NCBI RefSeq assembly: GCF_001311985.1
Contig: NZ_BBCJ01000004.1
Span: 62,001-126,000, forward strand
DNA from: Geotalea toluenoxydans JCM 15764
GTDB taxonomy: Bacteria; Desulfobacterota; Desulfuromonadia; Geobacterales; Geobacteraceae
Length of the DNA: 64,000 nt
Direction of reading: 5' to 3'
Shown in pieces: positions 35,480-53,800 of the stretch (its first letter is position 1; each line of letters opens with the position of its first letter). Under the pieces are notes generated by a model. That model was given only the letters and a program-made list of their open reading frames with translations. It did not search any database and was not told the DNA's origin. Position numbers and translations under genes: made by a program.

Positions 35480-37095
35480 AGAGACCTTCCGCCACCCTCT
35501 CGATATTGTCAACCGCGTCACTGCAGGCTTTCCCCAGAGATCCGCCCCTTGCCGCACAAGCGTTCAGAGAAGGGAGCGCTGCTTCATCTCCGAGTCGGCC
35601 AAGCGCCGTAGCGGCCACAATCTTCATTTCGTCCCACTTACTCCATGGCAGCCAGCTGTTTGATCCAAGCAGGCTGAGCAGTGGGGTGACGGCCCGTCTG
35701 TCACCAATCCTGCCAAGGGCGATGATCGCTTCCTTCTTTACCTTGATTTGCCTGGAGAAAAATCCGATTTTTCAATAATCTGGATCAGCAGTTGCACGGC
35801 GGCATCGCTCTTTAAAAGACCCAGAGACATTATGGCATGAAGGACAATGGCCGGGTCTGCATCTTCAATAAGCTCGATAATCATGGATTCGGCATCTTTG
35901 CCGCCGATTTTTACCAGCGCATGGATAGTTTCCTTCCTTACCCGCTGATCGCCATGATAGAGCGCCGGCCTGAAGGCATTGGCGCTGTCCCTGCAGCCGA
36001 TCTGCCCTAAAATGGCCACCATGTTCCGGACCACATACCATCTCTCGTCCTTGAGCATGGCGAGAAGCGGAGGAACCGCCGGCTGGCCGATGGCGAGCAG
36101 TGCTGCTGCAAGTGATTTTCGGGCATGAAGCCGTCAGCCAGGCAGAGCCTCTGAATGATCACATAGCAATCTTTGCCCCCAGTTTTTTAAGTATGGGATA
36201 AATCTTTGCCGTCTCCAGCGGACTCTTGCTCTCCATGTGCTGCAGAAGAAAATCGATCGTAACCCCTTCAGCAATTTGCTCCAGGGTAAAAACAGCATAA
36301 TCTCTCTGCACTTGGGACCGGTTTGTATCTTCATTATGCTGCAGGAGCGCATGCAAAACCAGAAAAAGAGGGGCGCAAACAGCTCTTTCTTTGAAACCTT
36401 CTGCCTTGCTGGCCAGATTGCGGGCCAACTGCTGGTAGCGGTTGTCGTCGGTTTCCCGGTCCATTCGGGCAAGCAGTTCCATCAAGGTATCTGTATCAGT
36501 GTTCCCACTGTCTGCGGGATAAGAACCTTCTTCCTCCGCAGCCCATTCAGGTCCCTCTTCGTCCGTTTTGGCCAGCGCATCTCCAGACTCCATTTTCTCT
36601 TCAAGCGCCTGCCGCTTTTCCCAGATCACCGACAGATCTATCTCATTGGCCCATATTGTTCGTATGCCCCTTGCCGGCATCAGCTGTGCCATCCCCCCGG
36701 AAAGCGCAAGATTCTTTTGGTCCATGGACAACAGGTGCAGGAACGCACGCAGGTCATCGAGGGACAGATCCGGGAGAAATGTAAGCTGCTGAATCCTGCG
36801 GATGAACAACTCAGCGGCAAGGCTGACAACCATCTGGTTCAACTCTGCCTTTATCGGCTCACCTGCGTAGGAGAACCCTGCCCGGCTGATGGTCAATGCC
36901 AGTTCTTTTTCCTGCACAAAATGCCCTAAGGTATTATAGACATTGGTGACTATCTCCTCGCGCTTCGGGTGCTTCGGGATAAAAGCCGATGGCTCTCATT
37001 GCCTTGTAAATATCTGCCAGAATAGGACCGGGGTTTCCAGGCTTTTCTGTCTTGGGGCGTACCAGCTTCAATATGGATTCGGTGCCTAAATTCAT
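35472..37095 (-). CDS. HEAT-repeat protein coupled to the HD-GYP gene (at least four frameshifts)
   Basis: Reading from the ATG at 37095, the frame gives MNLGTESILKLVRPKTEKPG and breaks near 37000. It continues as HPKREEIVTNVYNTLGHFVQ and then a long alpha-helical region with an acidic insert (about residues 140-180), then HEAT repeats (WYVVRNMVAILGQIG, RVRKETIHALVKIGG, IVLHAIMSLGLLKSD, EAIIALGRIGDRRAV). Further breaks lie near 36158, 36127 and 35765. The stop at 35472-35474 overlaps the HD-GYP start. The whole is about 540 aa. I infer one gene because the pieces follow one another with no stop in the restored frame. Confidence 0.7.
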
Positions 37096-37253
37096 CGTTT
37101 CCCTGTTTACGCAGGATAATGGTAGAAAAGGAATTTTATATTAATGTCAAAATCATTGTCAAACTAATACACCGATAGCCGCCACAAGGGTCGCTGTTGA
37201 CACCCCTGGAGAAAGGGACTACTATCCGGGCCAGTACAAAGAGGGATAAGACA

Positions 37254-38642
37254 TTGAAAACAAAGACCCTTTACAGTTGCCAGAAATGCGGCTACCAGTC
37301 CGCCAAGTGGCTTGGCCGATGCCCCGACTGCGGGGCATGGAATACCATGGAGGAAGAAGTTGCCATTAAATCCGGGGCAGCCGCCAGCAGGTCACTCCCC
37401 GGAGGCCCCCCCTTGCCGATCAACCAGGTCGGTGGGGAAGCAGAGATGCATCTTCCCACCGGCATCTCAGAGTTCGACCGGGTGCTGGGGGGAGGGCTGG
37501 TGGCAGGTTCCCTGGTCCTTATCGGTGGTGATCCCGGTATCGGTAAATCTACCTTGCTTCTGCAGGCCATGAACCACGTGGCTAAGGCCGGCGCCGTCCT
37601 TTATGTTTCCGGAGAAGAGTCCGCCCGGCAGATCAAGTTGCGCGGCGCGAGAATGGGAGTCAATGCCCCTGGCCTCTACGTCCTGGCCGAAACGGCCCTG
37701 GAAAACATCCTTGCCCATATTGCCAGGATGCAGCCGAAGGCGATAGTTATCGACTCCATTCAAACTATCTTCACCTCAGGGCTGGAATCGGCACCCGGCA
37801 GCGTCAGTCAGGTGCGTGAGACAGCCGGCCGGCTGATGATAATGGCGAAAGGGAGCGGCATTCCGGTCTTCATTGTCGGCCATGTGACCAAAGATGGCGC
37901 CATAGCCGGCCCACGAGTGCTGGAACATCTTGTTGACACCGTCCTCTACTTTGAAGGGGACAGCGGTCATCCGTTCAGGATTCTGCGTGCGGTTAAAAAC
38001 CGGTTCGGTTCCACCAACGAGATCGGTGTCTTCGAAATGAAGGAAGGAGGGCTCTGCGAGGTCAGAAATCCCTCCGAGCTTTTCCTTTCCGAACGGCCCA
38101 TCGGGGCTTCCGGCTCTGTGGTCGTGGCGTCTCTGGAAGGGAGTCGCCCAGTCCTCGTCGAGCTGCAGGCCCTGGTCAGTGCCTCTTCACTTGGTGTTCC
38201 TCGCCGCACAACCATTGGCGTCGATCATCACCGTCTGTCCCTGCTTGTGGCTGTTCTTGAGAAAAAAGTGGGGCTGTCGCTGGCGGGCCAGGACATTTTT
38301 CTGAACGTGGCGGGCGGGGTAAAACTGAATGAGCCTGCCGCCGACCTGGGCATGGTTGTTGCCGTCGCTTCAAGCCACCTTGACAAGCCCATAGCCGGCA
38401 ACACCCTCCTTTTGGGGGAGGTGGGTCTGACCGGAGAAGTGCGAGGTATTACCCAGCCCGAGCTTCGAGTCAAGGAAGCCGCCAAGCTGGGATTCAGCCG
38501 CTGCATCCTTCCAGCCGGCAATCTGAAACAGGTTAAAGCAAAGGGTCTTGAACTCATTGGCGTGAAATCGGTAGACGAAGCCTGGACAAGGTCTTTTAGG
38601 TCACTCCTCGGCAGGCTTGACCACAAAATTTTCCTTTACTAA
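37254..38642 (+). CDS. radA: DNA repair protein RadA
   Basis: RadA is a RecA-like ATPase that promotes branch migration during recombination. The N-terminal zinc finger has C9/C12 and C23/C26. Walker A is GDPGIGKST at residues 92-100. The RadA-specific KNRFG motif follows, and the C-terminal Lon-like domain (SLAGQDIFLNVAGGVKLNEP) completes it. At 462 aa it is a normal length. I chose the TTG at 37254 because GAGGGATAAG lies upstream and the zinc finger then starts nine residues in; an upstream TTG at 37197 adds unrelated residues. It reads through no frame break, unlike most neighbours. Confidence 0.93.
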   Translation: MKTKTLYSCQKCGYQSAKWLGRCPDCGAWNTMEEEVAIKSGAAASRSLPGGPPLPINQVGGEAEMHLPTGISEFDRVLGGGLVAGSLVLIGGDPGIGKSTLLLQAMNHVAKAGAVLYVSGEESARQIKLRGARMGVNAPGLYVLAETALENILAHIARMQPKAIVIDSIQTIFTSGLESAPGSVSQVRETAGRLMIMAKGSGIPVFIVGHVTKDGAIAGPRVLEHLVDTVLYFEGDSGHPFRILRAVKNRFGSTNEIGVFEMKEGGLCEVRNPSELFLSERPIGASGSVVVASLEGSRPVLVELQALVSASSLGVPRRTTIGVDHHRLSLLVAVLEKKVGLSLAGQDIFLNVAGGVKLNEPAADLGMVVAVASSHLDKPIAGNTLLLGEVGLTGEVRGITQPELRVKEAAKLGFSRCILPAGNLKQVKAKGLELIGVKSVDEAWTRSFRSLLGRLDHKIFLY

Positions 38643-38696
38643 ATAGTTAAATTCCTTTTTAATATTATAATGATTTAGCAAAGGATGGTGAAGTCC

Positions 38697-39053
38697 ATGG
38701 ATTCAGAAAAGCTTGAGTATTTTAAAAACGTGCTGCTGGAAGAGATCCGCGTCCTCAGGGAAGAAGCCGGCAGGACCGTATCGGAAATGACCTCGGACAC
38801 GACGAATTTTCCCGACCCAAATGACCGGGCTACCCAGGAATCGGATCGCAACTTCGAATTGCGCATCAGGGACCGGGAACGGAAACTCATCAACAAGATC
38901 AAGGAAGCACTTCAGCGTATCGAGGACGGCACCTTCGGCATCTGCGAAGTATGCGAAGAAGACATCAGTGAAGCGAGACTCAAAGCACGCCCGGTAACCA
39001 CCCTTTGCATTGACTGCAAAATGGATCAGGAACAGAAAGAAAAGCTGCGATAA
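38697..39053 (+). CDS. dksA: DksA/TraR-type zinc-finger transcription regulator
   Basis: An intact 118-aa protein. It has a coiled-coil N-terminus (MDSEKLEYFKNVLLEEIRVL), a conserved middle (DTTNFPDPNDRATQESD) and a C-terminal zinc finger, CEVCEED and CIDCKMD. DksA binds the secondary channel of RNA polymerase with ppGpp to adjust rRNA and amino-acid promoters. The Asp pair at the coiled-coil tip is present (FPDPNDRA). I prefer the ATG at 38697, eight bases after AAAGGATGG; a start at 38685 has the ribosome site too close. A TATAAT (38666-38671) lies just upstream. Confidence 0.9.
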   Translation: MDSEKLEYFKNVLLEEIRVLREEAGRTVSEMTSDTTNFPDPNDRATQESDRNFELRIRDRERKLINKIKEALQRIEDGTFGICEVCEEDISEARLKARPVTTLCIDCKMDQEQKEKLR

Positions 39054-39109
39054 TTTTCAGTATGCTCTGACTTTTCACCCTCCACTACACATCCCGCCGG
39101 AGTTTTGCC

Positions 39110-40935
39110 ATGACCTTTCGGGACAGGTACAACCTCTTGAGTTATGCGGTGCGCATAGCCGACGCCCCAAACCGCACTTCTCTCCAGAAGTTGAAATCTC
39201 TTGTCAAACGTCTTGCCGGTTCACTCCAGCTAACATCCGTCACCATTTATCTCCATGATCAGTATCAAGGATGCCTGTCCAGGAAAATAAGCAGCGCCGA
39301 TCCGGGCACCATGACTCCATGCAATATCCCACCAGGACAGGGCGGCGCCGGAATTTGTGCTGCCAGAAGAATTCCGCTCTCTATCCCTCCGCAGGCTCTC
39401 CATGCCGACGAAACCAGGCATGGTAGTGAAGTCGAATTTCTTTGCGAACCCATCTCACGCAATGACCGATTTTTTGGCGTTCTCGCCATCGGCCTGGGGC
39501 CAAACGAGAGCCTGACCGCTACCAGGAAAAAGGTCCTGGAGCAGGTGCAAACCATTGCCCTTCAATTGTTGACCAACCTTTCTGCTGAAAATGACAAAAA
39601 ACTGAAAGACCTGTCCCTTCTCTACCGTGTCAGTAATACCATCCTTTCCACCATTGAACTGAACAAGCTGATCCACCTTACCCTGACGGCGCTTACTTCG
39701 GGGCCGGCTCCCTTTTTCGACCGGGCCATGCTTTTCCTTATCAACAAAAGGTCAGGAATCATGCAGGGAATGCTTGGCGTGACCAGGGAAACAGCAGCTC
39801 GCTGCACCGATCCCTTCAACGAGTCTGAGGATATCCTGGCCAGTCGCTGGGATATCTCCGATGATAGCATGGTCTGCCAGCGACAATCCGACTTCAATCA
39901 AAAGGTAATGGCCAGCCGTCTGGAGTTGGACAAGTCACTGAACCTGGCGTCCCGGGCCGTGCTGGAAAAACGGCTGATCTATGTGCCCGTGGCCGCCCGC
40001 GAAAAGCAGGCGGATCATACTTTCATCAAGCGCTTCGGCATCAGCTCCTTCGCTGTCGCCCCCCTCATAGCCCGTGAAAAGGTGGTAGGGGTCATCGTGG
40101 TCGACAACAGCCTCGAAGGAAGGCCTATCAGCAAAGATAACCTGCGCTTTTTACAACTCTTCACCAATCAGGCCGGCATGGCCATCCAGAATTCCATCCT
40201 CTATAATCGGATCGAAGATACCAATCGCGATCTGTCGGAGGCCCAGGACCGGCTCATCCAGGGAGAGCGTCTGGCGGCCATAGGTGAAATGGCTGCCGGC
40301 ATTGCCCATGAGCTCAAGGGCCATTGGTTGCCATCGGCGGATTTGCACGGCGGTTGGCAGGCAGGCTGGCCAAGGCATCCGACGAGAAAGAAAGTGCCGA
40401 CCTGATCGTCAGAGAAGTGCTGAGACTGGAGAAGATGCTGACCGATATCCTTTCTTTCTCCAAGAAGACAACAATCTGTTACACCCCCTGCAATATCTCT
40501 GAGATAGTTAAGGACGCTCTGGCAGTGGTCCGGCCCTCCTTGGAAGAGAAAGGCATCCGGGTTACGACCCGCTTTCCCCGAAAGATCGAGGCGCTTCTCG
40601 GCGACTGTCAACAACTGAAACAGGTGTTCATCAACCTTTTCTTCAACGGACAGGAAGCGATGAAAAATGGCGGTGAGCTTGCCATTCGTGTCGGGACCTC
40701 AACCATCGACGGACAGAAAGCCGTTGCCGTCAAGGTCAGGGATACCGGCGGAGGCATTCCGCTGGAAACTCTTCACCACATCTTCAATCCCTTTTACACC
40801 ACAAAAGACACCGGCACCGGCCTTGGTCTTCCCATAGCAAACCGCATTATCACCAACCATTGCGGCAAGATCCATATCAACAACCGCCCCGGTATCGGGG
40901 TGGAATTCAGCGTCGTCGTGCCCATCCAGAACTGA
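39110..40935 (+). CDS. GAF-domain sensor histidine kinase (one frameshift)
   Basis: The joined protein is about 608 aa. One or two GAF-like domains fill residues 20-360 (FFGVLAIGLGP, SFAVAPLIAREKVVGVIVVD). The HisKA H-box is AAGIAHELKG, where the frame breaks: one missing base after it restores PLVAIGGFARRL. The HATPase domain has the N box NLFFNGQEAMKNG, the G1 motif VRDTGGGIP and the G2 motif TGTGLGLPIA. No membrane helices or receiver are seen, so it is a soluble kinase. It ends 51 bases before the tRNA-Ala gene. Its partner regulator is unknown. Confidence 0.85.
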
Positions 40936-40986
40936 AAATTCCTTTTCAACCGGTACAATTTGCGGTATACATTGAGAAAATCATCA

Positions 40987-41062
40987 GGGGATGTAGCTCA
41001 GTTGGGAGAGCGATGCGTTCGCAACGCATAGGCCGTCGGTTCGATCCCGATCATCTCCACCA
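40987..41062 (+). tRNA. tRNA-Ala (anticodon CGC)
   Basis: A 76-base tRNA folds with a 7-bp acceptor stem (GGGGATG with CATCTCC), a D arm (GCTC/GAGC), an anticodon arm ATGCG-TTCGCAA-CGCAT with anticodon CGC, a T arm with the loop TTCGATC, and an encoded 3' CCA. The G3-U70 wobble pair, the identity mark of alanine tRNAs, is present, agreeing with the anticodon. Its 3' 50 bases are repeated exactly at the far end of the island (47957-48006), so its 3' part was probably supplied by the inserted element. Confidence 0.95.
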
Positions 41063-41066
41063 ATAA
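41013..41066 (+). repeat. left attachment repeat (attL) inside tRNA-Ala
   Basis: This 54-base sequence, from the anticodon stem through CCA and into the next AATAA, is identical to 47957-48010. It begins in the anticodon arm, a usual crossover site for tRNA-targeting tyrosine recombinases. The bases just before the two copies differ (GCG here, ATT there), so the repeat ends there. Confidence 0.93.
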
Positions 41067-41068
41067 TA

Positions 41069-41104
41069 ACGAGGGGGTAGGCGATACAGCCTAGCCCCTC
41101 GTTG
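41069..41104 (+). terminator. hairpin after tRNA-Ala, probably element-borne terminator
   Basis: An ACGAGGGGGTAGGC arm pairs with GCCTAGCCCCTCGT (13 of 14 bases), with a 6-base loop. Only a weak T-rich tail follows. Because it lies inside the island, it was probably brought by the element to replace the displaced native terminator. Confidence 0.6.
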
Positions 41105-41348
41105 CATTTCAATCTGTTAGCGTGTCCTCCAGCATCTATGCTTGAAAATGAAAAAATCCCCCTCCGGGCAACTCCTTTTCCCTTGATCATATCTGTCCAC
41201 CCTACGTCTCATCGAAACTTCATTGGGTGAATCACTTCCCGGTGGCAATTGCGCATGCCAGTCAAACAGCTGGTAAAACCTCAAGAAATCTGGTATGTTT
41301 CAACAATTTCTAACACAAGAGAGTCCCATAAGAGACAGAGGATCGCAC

Positions 41349-42898
41349 GTGGAGAAACTGAGGATATTCGTCAGCTCGGTTCAGAAAGAGCTCGAAAACG
41401 AACGCATTGCCATTACTGAGCTCGTTTCGTCCGATCCCTTTCTCGGCCGGCATGTGGAGGCAATTCTGTTCGAGGAGCTTCCGGCGGCGGCCATTTCTGC
41501 TGAGGTAGCCTACCTTAGCGCCCTGCGTTCTTGCCACATATACATCGGGATTGTTGGCTTCGAATACGGTCGCAAGGGGGCTGATGGCCTTTCCGCGACT
41601 CACCGGGAATACACCGAGGCCAAACGGCTGGGAATACCCACCTTCTTCTTTGTCAAAGGCGACAATACGCAGGATGAGCGCCGTGATGAGGAGATGAAGG
41701 CCCTCTTTGCCGAAATCCGCGACGAACAGCACGGCCATGTCTATAAGCGCTTCACCCACTACCAGAGCCTGAAATCATCCGTCCGGGCTGTGTTGCTCAC
41801 GGAACTTGGAAAACAGGGCATGCGCCCGACCTCCGAGGAGACGGCAATTGCCGAGCAGACCATTGCCCAGGCCTCCGATTTCGACTCCCGTCTCATGGAA
41901 CGCGCCGATATAGCCGAGTTGGACAAGGCTCTGTGTCGCCGTCTTGTCGCGGCATGCACCGGCATCCCGGAGAGAGACCTGGAGGAGGACAGCATTCGCA
42001 AGACATTGATGAACCGCGGTTGATCTGGCAGAATGAAGAGTCCAGGGCCATCCACCCGACGGCCGCCGGTCTGCTCTTGCTGGGGAGAAGTCCCGAGACC
42101 TTCTTCCCGCAGGTTCGCATTGCCGCCAACGCTTTCGGAGGGAAAGAACGGGGCGAACCGATTGACCGCGAGGACATTCGTGACCCCCTGCCCATCGCGA
42201 TCGAGCGTACGTTTCAGTTCCTCAAGCGCAATATGCGGCACACCACCCGCATCGAAGGCTTCTCCAAGGTCGAAATTCATGAGTACCCCTATGAAGCCTT
42301 GCGGGAAGCCGTCGTCAATGCCGTTGCCCATCGTGACTACGATCTTGCCGGTTCAAGCATACGGGTGGAAAAGTATGCCGACCGCATCGAGATTGTCAGC
42401 CCCGGCCTCCCACCTGAACCAATCACCCTGCAGAAGATCGAGCGGCTCGATTACATTGCCTGTTCCCGTAATCCGAATCTGGCCCGAGGGCTTTCCTTTT
42501 TCGAGCGCATTGAAGAGCAGGGAGACGGCTTGCGCCGGATCGTGCGCGAGTCGGAAGGAATCGGCTTGTCACGTCCTCAGTTTCAGTTCCGAGACGGACA
42601 CTTCAAGGTCATCTTCTTCGCCCCGGAGGACATTCTGATGCTGAAGAGCCAGGGTGCCAGGCCGGTTTTCGAAGTGCCTGGGCATTTGCTTGCCAATCTT
42701 AGCGAGACGCAACGCACTATTATTAAACAATTGATTAAGCGGCAAACAGTGAAAGTGCCGGAACTTGCGGTTGAACTGAACGTAACGCCTCAAGCCATTC
42801 GTAAAGCTATCATGCCACTTATTGAGGCCAGGCTGGTTGTTCAGGAAGGTAAGGCGAGAGGCACGACCTACTCTCTCAAGGAAGGCTTACCGGAATGA
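41349..42898 (+). CDS. DUF4062 - ATPase - winged-helix protein (one frameshift)
   Basis: The joined protein is about 516 aa. The first 110 residues form a DUF4062 domain (LRIFVSSVQKELENERIAI), a TIR-like fold often seen at the start of bacterial STAND and other conflict proteins. The second half matches ATP-binding proteins of the COG2865 type, with the GHKL-like ALREAVVNAVAHRDYD (N box) and VEKYADRIEIVSPGLPPE. The end is a winged-helix domain (VPELAVELNVTPQAIRKAIM). The frame changes at about 42020; one T of TTT restores MNRGLIWQNEESRAI. I prefer the GTG at 41349, behind AGAGG, over 41295. It is the first gene of the island. Its role is inferred to be regulatory or defensive. Confidence 0.75.
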
Positions 42899-42900
42899 AA

Positions 42901-43106
42901 TCCGCAACTATTCGCAACCTGTTTACGCCGTATCCGCAACCATCGGCGGATATTGGTATCAACCAGAGAATCCGCAACTATCCGCAACCGGATTAGTGAG
43001 TATCCGCAACCGACTTTACGTCGGCCACCATTGGGGTATCTGCTACCATCCGCTACCGATTATAGCGGTATCCGCTACCAGAAAATGCCGCAACCGTTTT
43101 GCAACC
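42901..43106. repeat. iteron-like array: three degenerate ~69-bp units of TATCCGCAACC words
   Basis: Eleven words of the type (C/T)GC(A/T)AC, mostly within TATCCGCAACC, begin at 42903, 42913, 42935, 42973, 42983, 43005, 43041, 43051, 43073, 43089 and 43100. The first nine fall into three triplets, each with internal spacings of 10 and 22 bases, starting at 42903, 42973 and 43041 (steps of 70 and 68). The step is not a multiple of three, so this is not coding. Spacings near one and two helical turns suggest stacked protein-binding sites. It begins right after the DUF4062 gene stops. Confidence 0.8.
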
Positions 43107-43285
43107 GGATTTGGATGATTCCGAACCCAAGTTATGAGGCATCGGGGACTTGGCAGTGCACTTTGCAAGCTTGGCGCGGAGTCCGATGATATCAGGAGGT
43201 TGAATGCCCCCAGGAGGATTTGTCTGCCAGCAGGTGCGGCCATTGCTGTCTTAACCTCGGCGCGTTGGCATTTGAAGCAATCATT

Positions 43286-43331
43286 AAGCAAATCATGATG
43301 CAAAGATGCTGGTTTGCATCATTGTTTGCTT
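43286..43331. repeat. long inverted repeat after the primase-helicase gene
   Basis: Two 19-base arms (43286-43304 and 43313-43331), with only two mismatches, surround an 8-base loop; the left arm begins AAGCAAATCATGATGC. It lies 17 bases beyond the stop of the primase-helicase gene. There is no T run on either strand, so it is not a standard terminator. It could be a processing or protein-binding hairpin. Confidence 0.65.
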
Positions 43332-43347
43332 CAGTGTAGCAAAGGAG

Positions 43348-45772
43348 TTATGAAGCACGCTGTGGCGTGGCCTGCAAATACCCCATCGCCTTGAACCCCT
43401 TCATCCGCTTGTCATGCATCTTCGCCAGCATCGGCACTGAACTGTCCACATAGTCGTAAACCTGCACCTCACCCTTGCCGGGGTGGATTCGATGCAATCT
43501 GCCGGCGTATTGCACAAGCATTCCCTTCCATGAAAACGGCAGCGCCAGAAAGAGGGTGTCCAGCCGGGCATCATCAAAACCTTCGCCGATATAGCGTCCG
43601 GTGGCAAGGATCAATCGTTCCTCGTCATCGGGAATGGAAGCCAGATGATCCATGACCTTGCGCCGTTGCTTCACTCCCATCCCTCCCTGGAGCACCACCA
43701 GATGTTTCACCGAGTCACGTAGTTCCCCGGCAAGAAATTCCAGATGGTCTTTTCTCTCAGTCAAAAGGATAGGCGATCTTCCTTCGGCAAGTGACTGCCG
43801 GATATCATTGATGATGAGTCTGTTCCGCTGACGATCAGCGGTCAATAGGGCATAGATTTCCTGGATTGTCTTTTCACTGTTCGTGTCCGGCAGGCTGAAG
43901 CTGGTTTCCCGCAGGATCAATCGGCGAGTAAATTCTTCGTCTGTCGCCAGTTGTTTCCGGTTCAGTGAAAATCTGGTCGGACCGCACTGTAGGTGAATGA
44001 TCGGCTGATGGCCGTCCCGCCGGTACGGGGTAGCTGTGAGTCCTACACGTATTTTGCCTTGACCTCGGCCAGCACCCTTTCAAAGGAAAATGCCGGCAGG
44101 TGATGGCATTCATCCACGATGATCTGGCCATAGTTGGCCACCAGGTCGGCGACCTCTTCTTTTCGGACCAGACTCTGCATCATGGCCACGTCAAGGACAC
44201 CGGTAGCCTTGCTCTTGCCGGAGCCGATAGTGCCGATCGTCTTTGGCGGGAGGTCAAGAAAGCGGGAGAGCTGTGACACCCACTGGTCAAGGAGCGGTTT
44301 ACGATGGACCAGGACAAGAGTTGAGCAGTTCCGGGTCGCAGCCAGCCATGCACCGATCACCGTCTTGCCGGAACCGGGTGGGGCAACGAAGATACCGATG
44401 TCATGCGGCAAAAGCTCATCAACTGTCTGCTGTTGGATGTCGGAAAGCGTGCCGTGAAAGGTGAAAGTGGTTGTTGTGCCGGTTTGTCGTTTGTCGTCAA
44501 GGTGTAACGCAATACCATACTCGTCCATAAGAGACTGGAGGACATCTCGACAGCCCCTCGGCAGGGCTACATGCCCTGGCAACTCCTCGAAACAGGCAAT
44601 TACCCTTGGGGTGTTGTGGGTGGAAAGCCGCATCTTCTGCTTCTTGAAGAATTCCGGATTCTGGAAAGCGGCCAGCCGTTTGATCCGGTTCAGCAGTGCA
44701 GAGGGAATTCCTTTCGTCTCGATGAAGATCCGTTGCGCGAGAATGGCGGCGATCTTTTTCGGCAGTTTCCCTTTTATCCGTTGTTCCGGCAATCGGCCTG
44801 ACGGTGAACGTTCCCACGGGGCCTGTTCCTCGTCATCATCGGATGGCAATTTCAAGCCGATCACCTGGCCCTTTCGGACAGCCCGGTCGGCGATTATTTG
44901 CACTTCTTGCGGAGAAAGGTGCTTGAGCGAGGCCAGATAGCCCCACTGATCGGCATATGGAACAAAGGATTCATCGACAAAGACCGAGTTTTCCAGCTTA
45001 CGGGGCTCCCCTTGCATCGGCAGGGCGATCAGGTTGCCAAAGCCGCCACGGGGCATGGTGTCCTGGCTGGGGAAAAGTCGATCATAGGATTCCATGCTGA
45101 GTTGATGACGTCGGGACATGGTCTCGGTGATGAGGTAACATCCCATGACTCGGGCAACCGAGGCCATGACCGGATTGGTAAAAAAGAACCAGACATGAGC
45201 GCCATTGCCGGAACGTGAGCGTTCCACGGCCACAGGGAGGTCAAGAGAGGAACATGTTGCCCGGAAGGCCGCTACGTCCTCCTGCCAGGTAGACTTGTCA
45301 AAGTCCACGGCCAGAAATCGGCAGGTGTCGTCCGGCAGCAGCGGATAAACGCCTATGGTCTCTTTGCCTTGAAGATGCTCGCGAAGTACCGCATCACCGA
45401 CCGGGATATAGGCCTGGTGGTCACAGTCGCTACACTTGATGCGGGGAAACTTACGTTTTCCGCAGAGCGCGTATTTGCCGTCATTGGCGCAAGCGGCATG
45501 TAACCTTTGCGGTCATCTTTCTTGCTGAGCCAGAGTTTTGGGTATACATCTTCCCTTCCCCTGAAGAGGGAACGGAACAGGGCAATCTTTGCTGTCGGGG
45601 ATAACGTGGTATTCCCCTGGGTTGGGGAAGGGTCTATATCAATGCCTGACAGTTGCCGACGCAGGTCAAGAAGACGTTCAAGTATCGTCTGCCGCTCAAT
45701 ATCGAGCCGGGCAAGTCGACCTTCCTCCTGAGCGATTGTTTCACTAAGCCGATCTTTGATAGTCTTCGCCAA
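43348..45772 (-). CDS. TOTE-type archaeo-eukaryotic primase fused to SF2 helicase (frameshifts)
   Basis: The joined protein is about 808 aa. A coiled-coil start (to about residue 45) is followed by a Cys-rich zinc element (HAACANDGKYALCGKRK with IKCSDCDHQAYIPV). The primase domain has motif I AVDFDKSTW and motif II RSRSGNGAHVWF. The superfamily-2 helicase has Walker A FVAPPGSGKTVIGAWLA, DECHHLPAF, LTATPYRRDG and motif VI YAGRLHRIHPGKG. Frame breaks lie near 45497 and near 44040 (VLGLTATP restored by one T of TT). This domain order is that of the TOTE conflict-system family. It starts 38 bases after the SWIM gene on the same strand, so the two form an operon. Confidence 0.85.
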
Positions 45773-45810
45773 AGTTTTATCCGTGTGGTCCTGAGTGAAT
45801 TATCTCGGCT

Positions 45811-47755
45811 TCAGCCGGTAATCTTTTTCCCCGACAGGCTATCGAGCACCTCCATCAGTCGCCGCTTTGCCTTGTGGTCCCTCCGCAGCTCAATGAGCAG
45901 GTTCTGCCAGTCAGAAATGCGCCTGGTCTCCTGGTAGACTTTGCACATGCGTCGCAGATAAATAGCAGCCTCTTCGTAAGCCTTCGGTTTGACCTGCCCG
46001 ATCAGACTCTCCGCGATGGCCCGCCAGATGTCGAGGGCGATCTGGGGGTGGGATTCGGCGACTGCCTCGGCAACGGCCTTGTCCGTATCCCAGCCCCAGC
46101 GTTTGGTTTTCCGCAGCTCCTGGTACAGGGCAACCACGTCGTCGAAACGCCTCTCCAGGATGGCGATGTCGATAAGCATGTTGAGGTTCGGGAACCTTTC
46201 GTACCGCATTTCTGCTTTGTTTTGGGGTCTCATGACTTCCGGCTGCGGCAGTGGCCACTCCTTTGATCTCTTTTCCTTGCCGGACGGGTCGGGACGCTGA
46301 CCGGTCTCAAGATAGCGGAGCACGCAGCCTCTGACCGCAGGCCAGACCCTGGCCTTCTCCGCAGCCTTACGCAGCTCCGTGTAACTCTTGCGGGAGGCGC
46401 TGACAAAGAAATCCTCAGCCCGGTAAGCGGCGGCCAGATCATATTTCTTTTCTTTTTCAGCCATTTCCCGCAGCCTCACCTGCAGTTCGGCAGCAATGCC
46501 GGAAGCATTTTCCACGGTGCGCTCAAAGCCCCGAACGCACCACTGCCGCGCCTTTTCCTTTTCACCGGCGGCAAAGAGTGCGTCGACAAGTTTCCCATAA
46601 CATCGGCAGGCATCCGCTTCCTTTTCAAGGAGAGGAATGATGTCTTGCCGCCGGCCGCTCCGCTCAAAGGCGTCAAGGAGCATGTTCAAGATCCCGTTCC
46701 GCTGGTAGGTTTCGGAGAAGGCGGCGGACGCCGGCCTGGCTATGGATTTCAGGCGGGCTTCAAGAATATCCGCCACTTCACGCCAATTGGCTTGGGTGTA
46801 TGCCCCGCTCTCCAGCATCTTCCCGTCTGATTCCAGAAGGCTGTATTCGTCCGCCAGCGTATGATCGATCACCCACAGAAGCTGCTCCGACGGGGTCATG
46901 GAGGATTGAGGCACGGCGGCCAGCACAATCTCCATGCATTCGGCGATCGCCGTGGCAGTATCTCCCTCATCGTGGGACTGTTCCACCTGTTCGTTCCCCC
47001 TGGTCCAGAGCTCCTCTCCCAGTTGGAGCACCGCATCGGCATGGCCGTTGGTGAGGAGCGCCTGCAGTTGCTTCCGCACATGGGTATAATCGGGGAGGTT
47101 CCCTTCGTCTTCCCAGTGGCTGTGCCAGGCGGGCTCGGCGGTGATGTTTCTGATCTCCCGCCGCAGGGAACTCACGACTTTATCGACCCGGCCCGTTGCG
47201 AGTTGTTCCTTTTCCAGCATCCCACGCTCAATCTCAGGATAGCGGCCGCTCAGGTCCATCAGCAGCGCCACCAGCTCTTCCTTGTCCATCCCCTCAAATA
47301 TCTTCCGCAGTCGTGCCTTTCCCTTTCCCGTTGCGGGCGTGGCAATGAATTCAGACTCTTCATCTTCCTCCCCCATTCGTCATCATCCCCGTAATCGTCG
47401 GTCGAATCGTCGAAGAGGGCCTGGAATAGATCATCATCCTCGGCGAGCAAAGGTATCGTCTTCTTTTGCTTCACGTGCTCCGCCGCCGCCAATACGACCG
47501 ACACCGTATGCTTGCACGGACCCAGTCATAGGGGCAGGTGCAGAAATAGTCGAAGTCACCGTGTGAATCCAAGTGGACGGAGGTGGCGTACTCCTCGCTT
47601 CCCGACACCCATGCCGCCAAGGTGCCGTCTTCCGTGCGTGAAAGCCCTTTGACGTTGCTTACGTAGGATTTGCCGCGACTCAAAATCTTTGCGCCCGCCC
47701 ATTCCCGAAGGTCATCCAGGGTCAGATTCCGGAGAATAGCGTTGATTTTTTTCAT
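45811..47755 (-). CDS. SWIM zinc-finger protein, partner of the primase-helicase (two frameshifts)
   Basis: The joined protein is about 648 aa. The N-terminal 70 residues include a SWIM zinc finger: FCTCPYD, then, after a frame break near 47510, GPCKHTVSVVLAAAEHV, giving the CxC...CxH signature. SWIM fingers bind DNA or protein and are common in mobile and conflict genes. An acidic linker (DDSTDDYGDDDEW) follows, the frame breaks again near 47370, and then comes a long alpha-helical, tetratricopeptide-like region to the C-terminus. The start at 47755 gives MKKINAILRNLTLDDL. It is the first gene of the operon with the primase-helicase. Confidence 0.8.
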
Positions 47756-47956
47756 TTTCTGCCTCCGTAGTCAATGGGGGAAACAGTCGTGCAGTACTGT
47801 CAATTTCAGGCTATGATCCCGAGGTCGGTGTGAGAGCCTTCCAAGGATAACAAAAAGGCGCAAATGATATGGCAAAACATATTGAAAGTAAAGGGTAATT
47901 TGATAATTAAAGAATCAGACGGGCACATTTTGAAACATCGGGAAAACGGTAAAATT

Positions 47957-48010
47957 ATGCGTTCGCAACGCATAGGCCGTCGGTTCGATCCCGATCATCT
48001 CCACCAATAA
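47957..48010 (+). repeat. right attachment repeat (attR), 3' fragment of tRNA-Ala
   Basis: An exact 54-base copy of 41013-41066: anticodon arm, T arm, acceptor 3' strand and CCA of tRNA-Ala(CGC). The 5' half is absent, so it cannot make a tRNA. It marks the right end of the island and is followed directly by a strong terminator, the probable original downstream end of the tRNA gene. Confidence 0.93.
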
Positions 48011-48049
48011 AAGAAGAGGTTGTGCTGGGGGCATAACCTCTTCTTGTTT
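48011..48049 (+). terminator. rho-independent terminator, probable native tRNA-Ala terminator
   Basis: An 11-bp perfect stem, AAGAAGAGGTT (48011-48021) with AACCTCTTCTT (48035-48045), lies immediately after the tRNA fragment and is followed by GTTTG. Before the island inserted, it would have ended the tRNA transcript. Confidence 0.75.
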
Positions 48050-48097
48050 GACGGTAGTTTTTCAACAGATTCTTACCCTTCTTCATTTCCTGTCCCA

Positions 48098-49251
48098 CTA
48101 CAGAATAAAATAAAAGGTGGCCCCTTTCCCCACCTGTCCTTCTGCCCAGATCTCGCCACCATGGCGCTGAATGATGCGACTGACGGTGGCGAGGCCGATG
48201 CCATGGCCGGCAAACTCCCTGTCGCTGTGCAGCCGTTTGAATGGGCTGAACATGGTTTCGGCATACATATTGTCGAAACCGGCACCCTTATCCCGGATAA
48301 AGTAGCAGTTCCTCCCCTTCGATTCGGTTCTCCCCAACTCGATGAAGGTCTCCTCCTTCTTGCTTGAATACTTCCAGCATTGCCGATGAGGTTCTCCAAG
48401 GCGATTTGCAGAAAAATGGCGTCACCGTCAACTCTTATGCCGTCTGCAATTATGCATATTACCCTATGATCGGGAGTCTTCATTCTCAGGCTGTCGGTGA
48501 TTTCCCTGGCAATCATGCTCAGATCAACCTCTTCCCTCCGCAGTTCACATCTGGACAGTCTGGAAAAGCAGAGCAGGGAGTCGATGAGTTTTCCCATCAC
48601 TCGGGTGCCTCCTGGATTCGCTTCAGGTAATCCAGATGTTCTCCTTTCAGCAGTGGACCGCACTGTTCCCTGAGCAGGTGGCAGAACCCGCCGATAATGG
48701 TCAGCGGGCCGTTGAGGTCATGGGAGACCGTGTAGTTGAAGGCCTCCAGTTCGCCGTTTGCCATTTCCAGTTCCATCTTCCTTGCCATAAGGTCCGTATT
48801 CAGCATCTCTATCTGCTCTTCGAGATGTTTCCGTTCAGTAATGTCCGTTATGAAGGCAAAGATGCATGGCTCGCAGTTTATCTCGATGAGCTCGGCAGAA
48901 AAAAAGTCCGGCGAAGATATTATTGTTCTTATCCCTGAAATAGATGTCCTCATTTTTCAGCTTGCCCTTATCTATGAGTGAGCTGATTATGCGGACCCGG
49001 TCGTTGTAATCCAGCCAGATGCCGATTTCGGCGGAAGTAAAACCGATAACCTCCTCTCGGCAATAGCCGCTCCTGTCGAGGAATTCTTCATTCACCTCGA
49101 TGAACCGTCCGGCCAGGGTGGTAATACACATGGCAACTGGTGCAGCATGGAAAAGCCTAGCGAAATCAATCTGGGAGGCCACGGTACTTTGCCGTTCAAA
49201 CTCGTTTTCTTCCTGCTCCATGTGAGACATTTTCACGTTAAGCATATGCAC
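48098..49251 (-). CDS. PAS-domain sensor histidine kinase (frameshifts)
   Basis: The joined protein is about 385 aa. A PAS domain (FHAAPVAMCITTLAGRFIEVNEEFL) ends with FAFITDITERKHLEE. The HisKA H-box is FNYTVSHDLNGPLTIIGGF. The HATPase domain has ALENLIGNA (N box), IRDKGAGFDNMYA (G1) and GHGIGLATVSRIIQRHGG (G2). Frame breaks lie near 48935, 48605 and 48365. No membrane helix is seen. The start at 49251 is uncertain, as several Met codons lie within 30 bases. It sits just outside the island, reading toward it, and upstream lies the remnant of another kinase. Confidence 0.8.
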
Positions 49252-49334
49252 GGTGCTGCTCCCTCTATTGGTTCCGGCTTACCAGAGCCAGTATTTTTTC
49301 ACCAATTTTTTTCCGGACGGTCCCTGTGGGGAAT

Positions 49335-49508
49335 TCAGACACCAACCGGCAGAGTGAACCAAATGGTTGTCCCGTTGCCGGGTTCCCGGCTTTCCACCCA
49401 GATATTCCCATTGTGGTGCACCGCTTTTCTGCAGATGGTGAGGCCAAGACGGACGTGGTCACTGTGGTCATGGGTCCTTTGTTCTCGAAAAGAAGGGGAG
49501 AGGGCTTC
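49335..49508 (-). pseudogene. C-terminal fragment of a sensor histidine kinase
   Basis: One minus-strand frame reads HDHSDHVRLGLTICRKAVHH, then NIWVESREPGNGTTIWFTLPVGV and a stop at 49335-49337. This is the G2 box and final strand of a HATPase domain. Nothing before it on this strand supplies the rest of a kinase: the cheB stop lies immediately upstream. It is either a remnant left by a deletion or recombination, or the end of a gene broken beyond recognition. Confidence 0.6.
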
Positions 49509-50596
<1,088 letters not shown>

Positions 50597-50603
50597 GGCG
50601 GAT

Positions 50604-51491
50604 TCAGCTCCTCAGGGCGTAAACGGTCTTGCCGCAGAGCCGGAACAGGTCGGTGGCATGGTGGAAGCTTTCAGAGTGGCCGGCAAAGAACAGGCCATGG
50701 GGATTAAGGTAACGGGCCAGGTTTGTCAGCACCCGCTGTTGGGTCATCTTGTCGAAGTAAATCATGACGTTGCGGCAGAAGATGGCGTCGAATCTTTCTG
50801 ACAGCCCCCAGTCCGTGCTGAGAAGGTTGAGCTGCCGGAAGGTGATCATCCGCTGCAATTCCGGTTTGACCTTGGCAAAGCCGTCGTTTTCTCCTCTTCC
50901 ACGGAGGAAGAAGCGTTTCATCCTCTTCGAAGAGAGCATTTGCAGCTGTTCAAGGGGATAGATGCCTTTGCGCGCCCTCTTCAGAACATTGGTATCTATA
51001 TCCGTGGCAAGGATGCGCACCGGAGCATTGAAACTGTTGAACTGCTCAATGGCGGTAATAGCCAGTGAATACGGCTCTTCACCGGTGGAAGAGGCACAGG
51101 TCCAGATGGTAATCGGCCTGTTGAATTTGATACTTCCCAGGTGGCGGGCGAGAATGGGGAAATGATGGGCCTCGCGAAAAAAGGAGGTCATATTGGTGGT
51201 CAGCGCATTGATGAAAGCTTCCCGCTCAAGATTATTGCCGCTTTCCAGGATGCCGATATAGTCGGTGAAAGAGGTGAGCCGTCTGGTGCGCAGGCGGCGG
51301 GCCAGACGGCTGTATACCAGGTCATGCTTGTTTGGTGAAAGGGAAATGCCGGCGATGCTGTGAATGAGTGCGCGAATGCGGCCGAACTCCTCCTCAGTAA
51401 GGGGAGAAAGGACCGCCTCCTTCCCATCCCATAGTCTGTCCGGTGCCGGCGTCTTGCCGGATGGTGCAGTCAGCATCCCCATCATTTCCAT
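50604..51491 (-). CDS. cheR: chemoreceptor methyltransferase CheR
   Basis: An intact 295-aa CheR. The N-terminal helical domain and the SAM-binding domain are both present: [17 protein letters not shown], then [16 protein letters not shown] (motif I) and [15 protein letters not shown]. It methylates Glu residues of the receptor next to it in the operon. The start at 51491 may be slightly long, since MEMMGML has three possible Met codons. It lies between mcp and cheB, 18 bases after mcp. Confidence 0.93.
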
Positions 51492-51509
51492 TGTTCCAGT
51501 CCCGGCGGT

Positions 51510-53232
51510 TTAAAATTCTTTCCAGTCACCCTCGGCCTCTGCCGGCACAGCGCAGTCATGCCCTTCCGCCTTGGCCAGCCGCATTAGAGCAGTGGCCGGC
51601 CTGGCCTTGGCAGTCAAAGGTTTGTTCGGCAGGGATTCGATCCTGCGTACTTTCTTCTCCACTGTTACCTTTCGCGATTGCATGGTTTCATCCAGCTTGA
51701 AGCGGCTGACCATTTGCACCAGTTGCCCTGCCTGTTCTTCCAGTGACTCTGCCGCTGCTGCCGCCTGCTCCACCAGGGCGGCGTTCTGCTGGGTCACATC
51801 ATCCATCTGGGTAATGGCGGTGTTGACCTGTTCGATGCCGCTGGACTGCTCCAGGGAGGCGGCGGAGATTTCGGCCATGATATCGGTGACCCTTTTTATG
51901 CTGGTGACGATCTCCTGGGTGGTGTGGCCTGCCTCCTCCACCAGTTTGCTGCCGTCTTCCACCTTGCTTACCGAGTCTTCAATGAGTGATTTGATCTCCT
52001 TTGCCGCAGCGGCGCTCCGCTGGGCCAGACTCCGTACCTCGGCGGCGACCACGGCGAAACCTCGTCCCTGTTCACCGGCTCGGGCGGCCTCCACGGCAGC
52101 ATTTAGGGCAAGGATATTGGTCTGGAAAGCGATGCCGTCGATGACGCCGATGATGTCGGAAATTTTGCGGGAACTGTCGGAGATGGAACCCATGGTGTTG
52201 ACCACTCTGGTAATGACCTCTCCCCCTTTGACCGCTACCGAGCTGGCACTGATGGCCAGCTGGTTGGCCTGCTGGGCATTGTCGGCATTCTGCTTGACGG
52301 TTGAGGTCAGCTCCTCCATGCTGGAGGCGGTTTCTTCAAGTGCCGAAGCCTGTTCCTCGGTGCGCTGGGAGAGATCAGCATTGCCGGCGGAGATCTGCTC
52401 GGTGGCTGTGGCAATGGAATCGGCGCCGTTGCGTACATCCTGGACGATATTGACCAGGCTGCCGTTCATTTCCTTCAGGGCCAGGAGCAGCTGGCCGGTT
52501 TCATCCTGAAATTTCGGGTCCACCTTGCAGGTCAGGTCGCCATCGGCTACCAGCTGGGCGGTGCGCACTGCCTCCTGTAGGGGAGTGGTGATGATGCGGG
52601 TGATGAAGACGCCGAAACAGATTGCAGGATAATCCCTACCACCGCCAGGATGAGGGTGGAGCGGATTGCGGCATTGGCCATGGCCGTGTTCTGCTCGGCG
52701 GTTGCCGCCGCCTGCTTGACCTTGAAGTCCACCAGCTTGTTGACGGCAGCCTGTTCAATCATGGCTGCCTGGGTCGCGTCCCCGTTATAGACGGCGAGGG
52801 CTTCGGCATCCCTGCCGGCCATGGACAGGTCGGCTATCCTGCCGATGAGCGGCCTGAAGACAGTGCGGCTGTCGCTGAAGTCCTTCAACAACCCCTTCTC
52901 CTCGCTGCCGGTAAAGGCCTTCTCAGCCATTTCCACATTCTTGGTGATCTCTGCGCTCAGTTCCTTGATCTGTTCACTGTATTTCTGTTTTTCCGCCCGG
53001 TCCTGTACCAGCAGAATCTTGGCCAGGTTCACCCTCACCCGCTGAAAGGCGGTGGAAATGGCTCCCAGTTGGGAAATTGGCATGGTGACATTTTCATAGA
53101 GCATCTGTCCATTGTCGTCGGCCTTATGGATGTTGGCAATGCCGATCCAGCCGATGATCCCGCGATGAGGGCCAGGATGATGAAGCTTGACAGCAGTTTG
53201 GTACCGATCTTCAGATTGTAGAACCATTGCAT
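51510..53232 (-). CDS. methyl-accepting chemotaxis protein with 4HB sensor and C-terminal tether (two frameshifts)
   Basis: The joined protein is about 574 aa. A first membrane helix ([13 protein letters not shown]) precedes a four-helix-bundle periplasmic sensor, a second helix, HAMP, and a signalling domain with the hairpin tip [20 protein letters not shown]. The last residues, DWKEF, resemble the NWETF-type pentapeptide that tethers CheR and CheB, both encoded next to it. Frame breaks lie near 53158 and near 52620. The ATG at 53232 follows AAGGAGAA and lies inside the end of cheW (22-base overlap). Confidence 0.9.
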
Positions 53233-53768
53233 AGCTGTTCTCCTTGGGCAGTTTTTGTATCCACCGGCAGTGCCGACGGTAGCATGCTTTCTGCGTTGTT
53301 CATCAGCTGCATCTCCGGGCTGGACATCAACCGCTCGATGTCCACCAGGATCAGCATCTGGTCATTGATGGTGCCGAGGCCGGTGATGTACCTGGTATCA
53401 AGACCGGAGCTGAATTCCGGAGCTGCCTTGACCTGTTCCGGAGCGAGGCTGATGACGTCAGATACCCCATCGACAACCATGCCGACCACTCTGCCGGCGA
53501 CATTGATGATGATGACGACGGTGAATTCGTTGTAAACGGCGTTGCCCAGGTTGAATTTGATGCGCATGTCGACGATGGGGACGATGACGCCGCGCAGGTT
53601 GATGACTCCCTTGAGGAAGTCGGGTGAGTTGGCAATGTGCGTTACCGCGTCATAGCCGCGAATTTCCTGTACCTTGAGAATATCCATGCCGTACTCTTCT
53701 TTGCCAAGGGTAAAGGTGAGATACTCTTCTCCCTCCCCGCTCTGCGTTGATCCCTGTTCATTCTGCAT
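53211..53768 (-). CDS. cheW: chemotaxis coupling protein CheW
   Basis: CheW links receptors to CheA. It has a single SH3-like CheW domain: [39 protein letters not shown], then [13 protein letters not shown] and [16 protein letters not shown]. The frame happens to be open upstream into cheA, so it looks like a fusion. The ATG at 53768 has its own AAAGGAGG eight bases before it, and a stop for CheA exists 33 bases upstream in a neighbouring frame, so I treat it as a separate protein of about 185 aa. It overlaps the receptor gene by 22 bases. Confidence 0.88.
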
Positions 53769-53800
53769 CCCACGCCTCCTTTGATCTGGTCCGGTGCCAG

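What the first reader, a model, noticed from the sequence alone, without database searches (positions are those of the whole stretch)
41013..48010. Exact 54-bp direct repeats from tRNA-Ala define a 6.9-kb genomic island
The 3' 50 bases of tRNA-Ala(CGC) plus four more recur exactly at 47957-48010 without the 5' half of the tRNA. The crossover point lies in the anticodon arm, as for tyrosine recombinases. The right copy is followed by a strong hairpin (probable native terminator) and the left copy by a different hairpin (probable element-borne one), which agrees with insertion. Seen directly: the repeats and hairpins. Inferred: integration.
Basis: partly seen in the sequence, partly recalled or inferred. 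Interest (0 to 1): 0.88.

Follow-up and report, generated by a model that had tools for sequence, protein, structure and literature searches.

The report
Stranded mobile island in tRNA gene
In a relative of Geobacter, a 6.9-kb block of predicted defence genes lies between two identical pieces of an alanine tRNA gene; it is likely what remains of mobile elements that inserted there and then lost their insertion enzyme, which is a known kind of island with cargo that also sits in such islands elsewhere.

Summary
In detail: tRNA-Ala(CGC) 40987-41062, exact 54-bp copies at 41013-41066 and 47957-48010, and a hairpin behind each. Integration is well supported. Of 58 genomes searched, 7 carry a 5'-truncated second copy of this tRNA (49 bp or more), and 5 of those 7 have a tyrosine integrase just inside it. 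The window island has no integrase. Its right 93 bp match the right end of an integrase-bearing element (G035), and its TOTE primase-helicase and SWIM genes match the module next to the integrase in G023, so an integrase-bearing end was probably deleted. Best reading: a CIME-like island, possibly fused from two elements. TOTE genes also sit in three other 4-kb tRNA-bounded islands without integrase (tRNA-Arg CCT, tRNA-Phe, tRNA-Arg TCG), one keeping arm-type repeats at both ends. Frame breaks in the window genes are probably assembly errors. New member of a known kind; the repeated pairing of TOTE with integrase-less tRNA islands is the interesting part.

The parts
40987..41062 (+). tRNA-Ala(CGC), full gene, target site
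   Evidence: ARAGORN
41013..41066 (+). left 54-bp copy (attL core)
41068..41103 (+). hairpin, likely tRNA terminator
   Evidence: sequence; similar hairpins after tRNA-Ala in relatives, by eye
41120..41129 (+). GCGTGTCCTC, likely a single remaining integrase arm-type repeat; the tandem form stands at a similar distance in G004 and G055
   Evidence: apart from this box the left end aligns with no relative above shuffles
41295..42898 (+). DUF4062 + HATPase_c_4 + winged-helix gene in two frames (41295-42023, 41933-42898)
   Evidence: Pfam PF13271 3.2e-18, PF13749 5.2e-21, HTH_11 1.2e-5; 93% identical relative in G008 in one open frame of 536 aa
42901..43095 (+). array of TCCGC(A/T)ACC boxes after the DUF4062 gene
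   Evidence: also behind the same gene in G008 and G023
43348..45772 (-). TOTE-type primase-helicase, three frame pieces (45353-45772, 44043-45308, 43348-43920)
   Evidence: PF22548 4.1e-56 and 3.6e-10, ResIII, Helicase_C; intact 810-aa relative in G023
45811..47755 (-). SWIM-finger protein gene, pieces 47471-47755 and 45811-47376
   Evidence: PADLOC PDC-S62 1.5e-11 and 5.2e-5, no Pfam match in the pieces; intact 686-aa relative in G023 with PF04434 SWIM
47864..47956 (.). right end, homologous to the right end of the integrase-bearing element in G035
   Evidence: alignment score 32 against a maximum of 0 in 2000 base shuffles
47957..48010 (+). right 54-bp copy (attR core), no 5' tRNA half
48011..48045 (+). 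hairpin, likely terminator, right side
   Evidence: sequence

Best explanation
A 6.9-kb stretch bounded by two identical 54-bp copies of the 3' part of tRNA-Ala(CGC) carries a TOTE-type primase-helicase gene, a SWIM-finger gene and a DUF4062/ATPase gene but no integrase, and it is likely the remnant (a CIME-like island) of tyrosine-integrase elements that inserted at the anticodon loop and lost the integrase end by deletion. Shown: the repeats, the gene content, the absence of an integrase, the absence of the island from G003, and integrase-bearing elements at the same tRNA in relatives with matching short repeats at both ends. Inferred: that these short repeats are integrase arm sites; that an element of the G035/G023 class brought the TOTE and SWIM genes and the right end; that deletion of its integrase, the AbiEi-like gene and the right arm sites stranded it; and (less sure) that the left part with the DUF4062 gene came from a second element of the GCGTGTCC arm class, so that the island is a fusion. 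It could then move only with an integrase from outside, or be carried along with a later element that inserts in tandem. The cargo likely acts in defence against invading DNA; this rests on family names only.
For: Exact 54-bp pair. 7 of 58 genomes searched (own included) hold a 5'-truncated copy of this tRNA of 49 bp or more (shorter pieces of 25, 29 and 37 bp in G033, G034 and G037 were not counted). In 5 of these 7 (G004, G023, G031, G035, G045) a PF00589 domain lies 0.8-0.9 kb inside the distal copy, and all five proteins carry an arm-binding domain. In 6 of 6 integrase-bearing elements checked (these five and L134) the two ends share a short repeat (for G004, G031 and G035 the two ends lie on different contigs). 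No PF00589 match lies in the island, searched in six frames with stops read through by the tool: the 4 matches of G000 are on C1, C2, C10 and C43. Right 93 bp homologous to G035 (score 32, maximum 0 of 2000 base shuffles) and weakly to G023 (5, maximum -4 of 500), not to G045, G031 or G004. In G023 the order from the distal copy is integrase, AbiEi-like gene, SWIM, TOTE, and its SWIM/TOTE stretch is 78% identical to the window over 4.4 kb. G003, a complete genome, has no AEP-TOTE match (E up to 0.001) and no DUF4062 relative (E up to 1e-15). The DUF4062 gene stands without an AEP-TOTE gene beside it in G008 and G023, in G023 1.2 kb behind a tRNA-Asn.
Against: G003 is not a clean pre-insertion site: its tRNA 3' half differs from both window copies and its terminator differs, so the order of events is unclear. 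The left end outside the hairpin and one 10-bp arm-like match aligns with no relative above shuffles, so the fusion part rests on little; the window's two ends share no direct 9-base word. The G023 contig with the DUF4062 gene also has an 85-bp match to the end of the TOTE gene 7 kb away, so the two modules may have met before. The integrases of G000 on C10 and C43 are only 22-28% identical to the tRNA-Ala integrases; those on C1 and C2 were taken as Xer-like by length and not compared. So no resident helper was found, in an assembly 84% complete. G+C of the island lies in the range of the flanks, so composition does not mark it as foreign. G016 has the truncated tRNA copy but no integrase match nearby.
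Confidence: 0.75

Rival explanations
1. The island is a non-autonomous element that moves as it is: its attachment sites are used by an integrase supplied in trans by another element.
For: TOTE genes recur in other small tRNA-bounded islands without integrase (L073, L130, L141), and L130 keeps tandem arm-type repeats at both ends.
Against: The window copy has no arm-type repeat at its right end and a single box at its left; no fitting integrase was found in G000; in L073 and L141 tandem repeats are seen at the right end only (for L073, by eye for L141), though L073's ends do share one 11-base word.
Confidence: 0.13
2. The integrase was never lost from this island: recombination between two chromosomes brought the cargo in, and the tRNA repeats mark an older element edge.
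For: Flank identity is unequal on the two sides (97.6% and 93.7%), and G003 differs in the tRNA 3' half.
Against: The right 93 bp are homologous to an integrase-bearing element end next to the attachment core, which plain recombination does not need.
Confidence: 0.08
3. Assembly artefact: a misjoin at the 54-bp repeat placed foreign sequence next to the tRNA.
For: The genome is a draft of 77 contigs with 5.16% contamination and many single-base length differences from G003.
Against: Both flanks are collinear with G003, so the join would have had to leave and re-enter the same place; the same module sits at the same tRNA in G023.
Confidence: 0.04

Closest known systems
CIME (cis-mobilizable element)
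   Same: Keeps attachment-site copies at both ends and lacks integration and transfer genes, as defined in passages read of PMC5704250.
   Different: Right arm-type repeats are not seen, so it may not be movable even with help; a parent with conjugation genes is not shown.
ssrA genomic islands of Dehalococcoides without integration module (PMC3146451, passages read)
   Same: Islands at an RNA gene that lack the integration module while relatives at the same site have it; the authors suggest they might be CIMEs.
   Different: There the integrase is a serine recombinase and the site is ssrA (tmRNA); here tyrosine integrase and tRNA-Ala.
Integrase-bearing tRNA-Ala(CGC) elements in G023 (Geobacter sp. 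UBA5735, identified through L064) and G035
   Same: Same tRNA, same crossover region; G023 has the same SWIM/TOTE module, G035 the same right end.
   Different: They have the integrase, and matching short repeats at both ends.
Small tRNA-bounded TOTE islands L073, L130, L141
   Same: TOTE gene, crossover in the anticodon region, no integrase found.
   Different: Other tRNAs (Arg CCT, Phe, Arg TCG) and other partner genes (AbiEi/AbiEii, Fic, nucleotidyltransferase).

Membership tests
CIME | attachment copies at both ends | tested here: met
   54-bp exact pair, anticodon-stem start
CIME | no integrase | tested here: met
   no PF00589 match between the copies, stops read through by the tool; a profile of 11 integrases finds none in island frames of 120 aa or more
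CIME | no transfer genes | tested here: met
   the seven main ORF pieces of the island show none in Pfam, PADLOC and NCBIfam
CIME | derived from an integrative element | tested here: inconclusive
   right end and module homologous to integrase-bearing elements; the direct parent was not seen
CIME | attachment sites still used (mobilised by helper or accretion) | not testable with these tools
   needs junction reads; no arm-type repeat seen at the right end
autonomous tRNA integrative element | own integrase | tested here: not met
autonomous tRNA integrative element | absent from a close relative | tested here: met
   G003 lacks the cargo at the site and has no AEP-TOTE or DUF4062 match in its genome
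autonomous tRNA integrative element | empty site identical to joined ends | tested here: not met
   G003 tRNA 3' half, terminator and next 0.4 kb differ
TOTE (Pfam name) | AEP-TOTE primase domain with helicase | tested here: met
   PF22548 above cut-off in two pieces, ResIII, Helicase_C
TOTE (Pfam name) | acts in conflict with invading DNA | not testable with these tools
   name only; three literature searches for the term gave 0 papers

The most novel reading that the evidence does not exclude
Integrase-less TOTE islands are a recurring class of small non-autonomous elements (4-7 kb) that insert at the anticodon loop of many different tRNA genes with an integrase borrowed from other elements, the tyrosine-recombinase counterpart of MITEs, and serve to spread primase-helicase defence modules; the window carries a decayed copy and L130 an intact one with both sets of arm sites.
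Probability: 0.15. Interest if true: 0.7.

Novelty: new member of a known kind. Interest (0 to 1): 0.42.

Why it matters
If the reading is right, it documents one tRNA gene as a heavily reused docking site in Geobacter and its relatives, with integrase classes told apart by their arm repeats, and shows how a defence module is left behind when the integrase goes. Searches that look for islands by their integrase would not see such islands (inference). The repeated finding of TOTE genes in integrase-less tRNA islands gives a testable question: stranded leftovers, or passengers that move with borrowed enzymes?

Tried and rejected
Helper integrase in the own genome: those on C10 and C43 are 22-28% identical to the tRNA-Ala integrases, so not a fitting helper; those on C1 and C2 were judged Xer-like by length only. 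Composition as a sign of foreign origin: no difference. The left end as homologous to a known element end: no alignment above shuffles. Frame breaks as decay: against G003 the flanks show 27 gaps in 12 kb, 21 of them of one or two bases, 15 of these 21 being bases missing from the window, mostly in short runs of one base; so the broken frames in the island are probably assembly errors, and the genes were searched as pieces. DUF4062 in the G004-type element as proof of fusion: no match in the stretches fetched. Resident match to L130's arm repeat: the 12-base pattern that I chose does not even fit L130's own repeats exactly and gave one match, with one for the reversed control, so that search said nothing. 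Literature on TOTE: 0 papers for 'TOTE conflict system', for TOTE with archaeo-eukaryotic primase, and for TOTE with primase and Aravind, in this open-access library only. The tRNA-Ala piece in G016 lies beside a tRNA-Ser and has no integrase match nearby; not followed.

Limits of the TOTE count: the control (40 stretches, 38 from neighbouring contigs and 2 from elsewhere on the same contig of the same genomes) is small and not matched for contig length; the 120 TOTE loci come from two samplings and were not freed of possible duplicates; the 40 phylum stretches are the 42 strongest rows less G048 and G408. One of the 10 tRNA fragments (L106) lies at a contig end and may be a whole tRNA cut off. 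The pair in L127 is two neighbouring tRNA-Ser genes and was dropped.

Full report
Observation. The window holds tRNA-Ala(CGC) at 40987-41062 and an exact 54-bp direct repeat, 41013-41066 and 47957-48010, 6,944 bp apart. The repeat begins in the 5' strand of the anticodon stem and ends four bases past the CCA. A hairpin follows each copy. The search of the own genome found these two places and one 76% identical place elsewhere.

Contents. Pfam, PADLOC and NCBIfam on seven ORF pieces give, left to right: DUF4062 and HATPase_c_4 with a C-terminal winged helix (+ strand), an AEP-TOTE primase with ResIII and Helicase_C (- strand) and a protein matching PADLOC's PDC-S62 (- strand), whose intact relative in G023 has a SWIM zinc finger. 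Each of the three genes is split over two or three frames. The flanks show the same kind of difference from the complete genome G003: 21 of 27 gaps are of one or two bases. So the splits are more likely assembly errors than decay. No integrase: a six-frame search of the own genome with PF00589, stops read through by the tool, finds four matches, none on this contig.

The site in relatives. Of 58 genomes (own included), 57 have a match to the tRNA query and 7 have a second, 5'-truncated copy of 49 bp or more (G000, G004, G016, G023, G031, G035, G045). Shorter 3' pieces in G033, G034 and G037 (25-37 bp) were left out. The seven copies begin in or close to the anticodon loop. In five of the seven an integrase with arm-binding domain lies just inside the distal copy and points inward; G000 and G016 lack one. 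The five integrases are 37-71% identical to one another. The two ends of each of these five elements, and of the tRNA-Asn element in L134, share a short repeat, often in tandem pairs, placed as integrase arm sites would be: GTGATACTT in G023 and G035, GCGTGTCCT in G004, TGTTGCCG in G045, TTGTACTTTT in G031, GGGTACACTT in L134. For G004, G031 and G035 the left and right ends lie on different contigs, so their pairing rests on the shared repeat. Tandem pairs 11-12 bp apart also follow tRNA-Ala in other relatives: 7 of 28 left ends scanned gave one, 5 of these with a shuffle frequency of 0.005 or less. That these are arm sites is inferred.

The absent site. G003 (one contig, 4,304,501 bp; recalled, not looked up, as the size of Geotalea daltonii FRC-32) is collinear with the window on both sides. 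It has no AEP-TOTE match and no DUF4062 relative at E 1e-15 or better. Between its tRNA and the PAS-kinase flank lie another terminator and about 0.4 kb with a MITE-like inverted repeat, seen by eye. Its tRNA region differs from both window copies at 4 of 54 bases, two of which swap both sides of one T-stem pair. So the island is absent there, but G003 is not simply the window minus the island. One of the two genomes has probably had its tRNA 3' half replaced; the data do not say which.

How the island came to lack an integrase. The 93 bp inside the right copy match the same place in G035 (score 32, best of 2000 base shuffles 0) and weakly G023 (5, best of 500 shuffles -4), not G045, G031 or G004. 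In G035 the arm-type repeats and the integrase follow inside this stretch; in the window 107 bp that matched nothing here and then the SWIM gene follow. In G023 the order from the distal copy is integrase, AbiEi-like gene, SWIM, TOTE, and SWIM/TOTE is 78% identical to the window over 4.4 kb. The simplest account is a deletion that took the arm-type repeats, the integrase and the AbiEi-like gene. The left end has one GCGTGTCCTC box at nearly the distance seen in G004 and G055, a different repeat class from G035/G023. The DUF4062 gene stands without an AEP-TOTE gene beside it in G008 and G023, in G023 behind a tRNA-Asn. A fusion of two elements fits this. Against it: apart from that box the left end aligns with nothing above shuffles, and the G023 contig with DUF4062 has an 85-bp match to the end of the TOTE gene 7 kb away. 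I give the fusion less than even odds.

Other TOTE loci. A scan of genome contigs with the window helicase kept the best 80 of 342 related stretches. A PF22548 search of 395 genomes of the phylum found matches in 106, from whose 42 strongest rows 40 stretches were taken. A full tRNA lies in 24 of the 120 loci against 1 of 40 control stretches (Fisher p 0.006); tRNA 3' fragments lie in 10 of 120 against 0 of 40 (p 0.067, not significant). The control is small and unmatched, and one fragment (L106) lies at a contig end. Four loci hold a full tRNA and a second copy of its 3' end in the same orientation around the TOTE gene: L073 (tRNA-Arg CCT, 4.5 kb), L130 (tRNA-Phe, 4.2 kb), L141 (tRNA-Arg TCG, 4.1 kb) and L134 (tRNA-Asn, 11.5 kb); all four come from the 80, none from the 40. 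L134 has an integrase. In the other three, at 100 aa or more and leaving overlapping frames aside, the only genes beside TOTE are AbiEi plus AbiEii, Fic, or an NTP_transf_8 gene, and a profile of this integrase family finds none in these loci. L130 keeps tandem CTCTGGTCG-type repeats at both ends. L073 shows a tandem repeat at the right end and L141 one by eye; L073's two ends also share an 11-base word that is not part of it. The genomes of these three hold integrases; whether one fits was not tested. L066 and L064 carry TOTE in integrase-bearing elements, so TOTE is not confined to integrase-less islands.

Reading. The window island meets those features of a CIME that can be tested: attachment copies, no integrase, no transfer genes. 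The definition was read in passages of PMC5704250; passages of PMC3146451 report 15 Dehalococcoides ssrA islands without integration module and suggest the same. Of PMC11389934 I saw two passages, one of which names integron cassette arrays without integrase as a helper-dependent kind. The kind is known. Three searches for the TOTE name gave no paper, which may only mean that the term is absent from this open-access library, so I cannot say that the pairing of TOTE genes with integrase-less tRNA islands is unreported.

Noticed in passing
window 42901-43095; L256 11437-11660; L257 4829-4870: Directly behind the DUF4062 gene stands an array of TCCGC(A/T)ACC boxes in groups of three with spacings of 10-11 and 22 bp: three groups in the window, a similar array in G008, one group in G023. 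It may be an operator for the winged-helix end of that protein; unexplained.
   Followed up: partly
L035 about 11040-11205 (G003): A MITE-like element with a terminal inverted repeat (about 19 bp, by eye) between tRNA-Ala and the PAS-kinase flank of G003.
   Followed up: no
L146 about 5933-6281 (G016 C23): A truncated tRNA-Ala(CGC) piece lies about 0.2 kb from a full tRNA-Ser(CGA), in a genome with no full-length match to this tRNA-Ala above 81% identity and no integrase match close by.
   Followed up: no
window 35000-54000: Host genes on both sides (for example the GAF/histidine kinase at 39110-40935 and the PAS kinase around 48073-49251) are split by short length differences against G003; probably sequencing errors in this draft.
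   Followed up: partly
L062 8525-11944; L063 4561-7983: tRNA-Phe and tRNA-Ser(CGA), respectively, are followed directly by a metallophosphoesterase-like gene and a TOTE gene; no second tRNA piece was found in the stretch held.
   Followed up: partly
window 43264-43341 and L043 9256-9333: A 78-bp stretch with an inverted repeat between the DUF4062 and TOTE genes recurs at 82% identity in G035, outside that genome's element.
   Followed up: no
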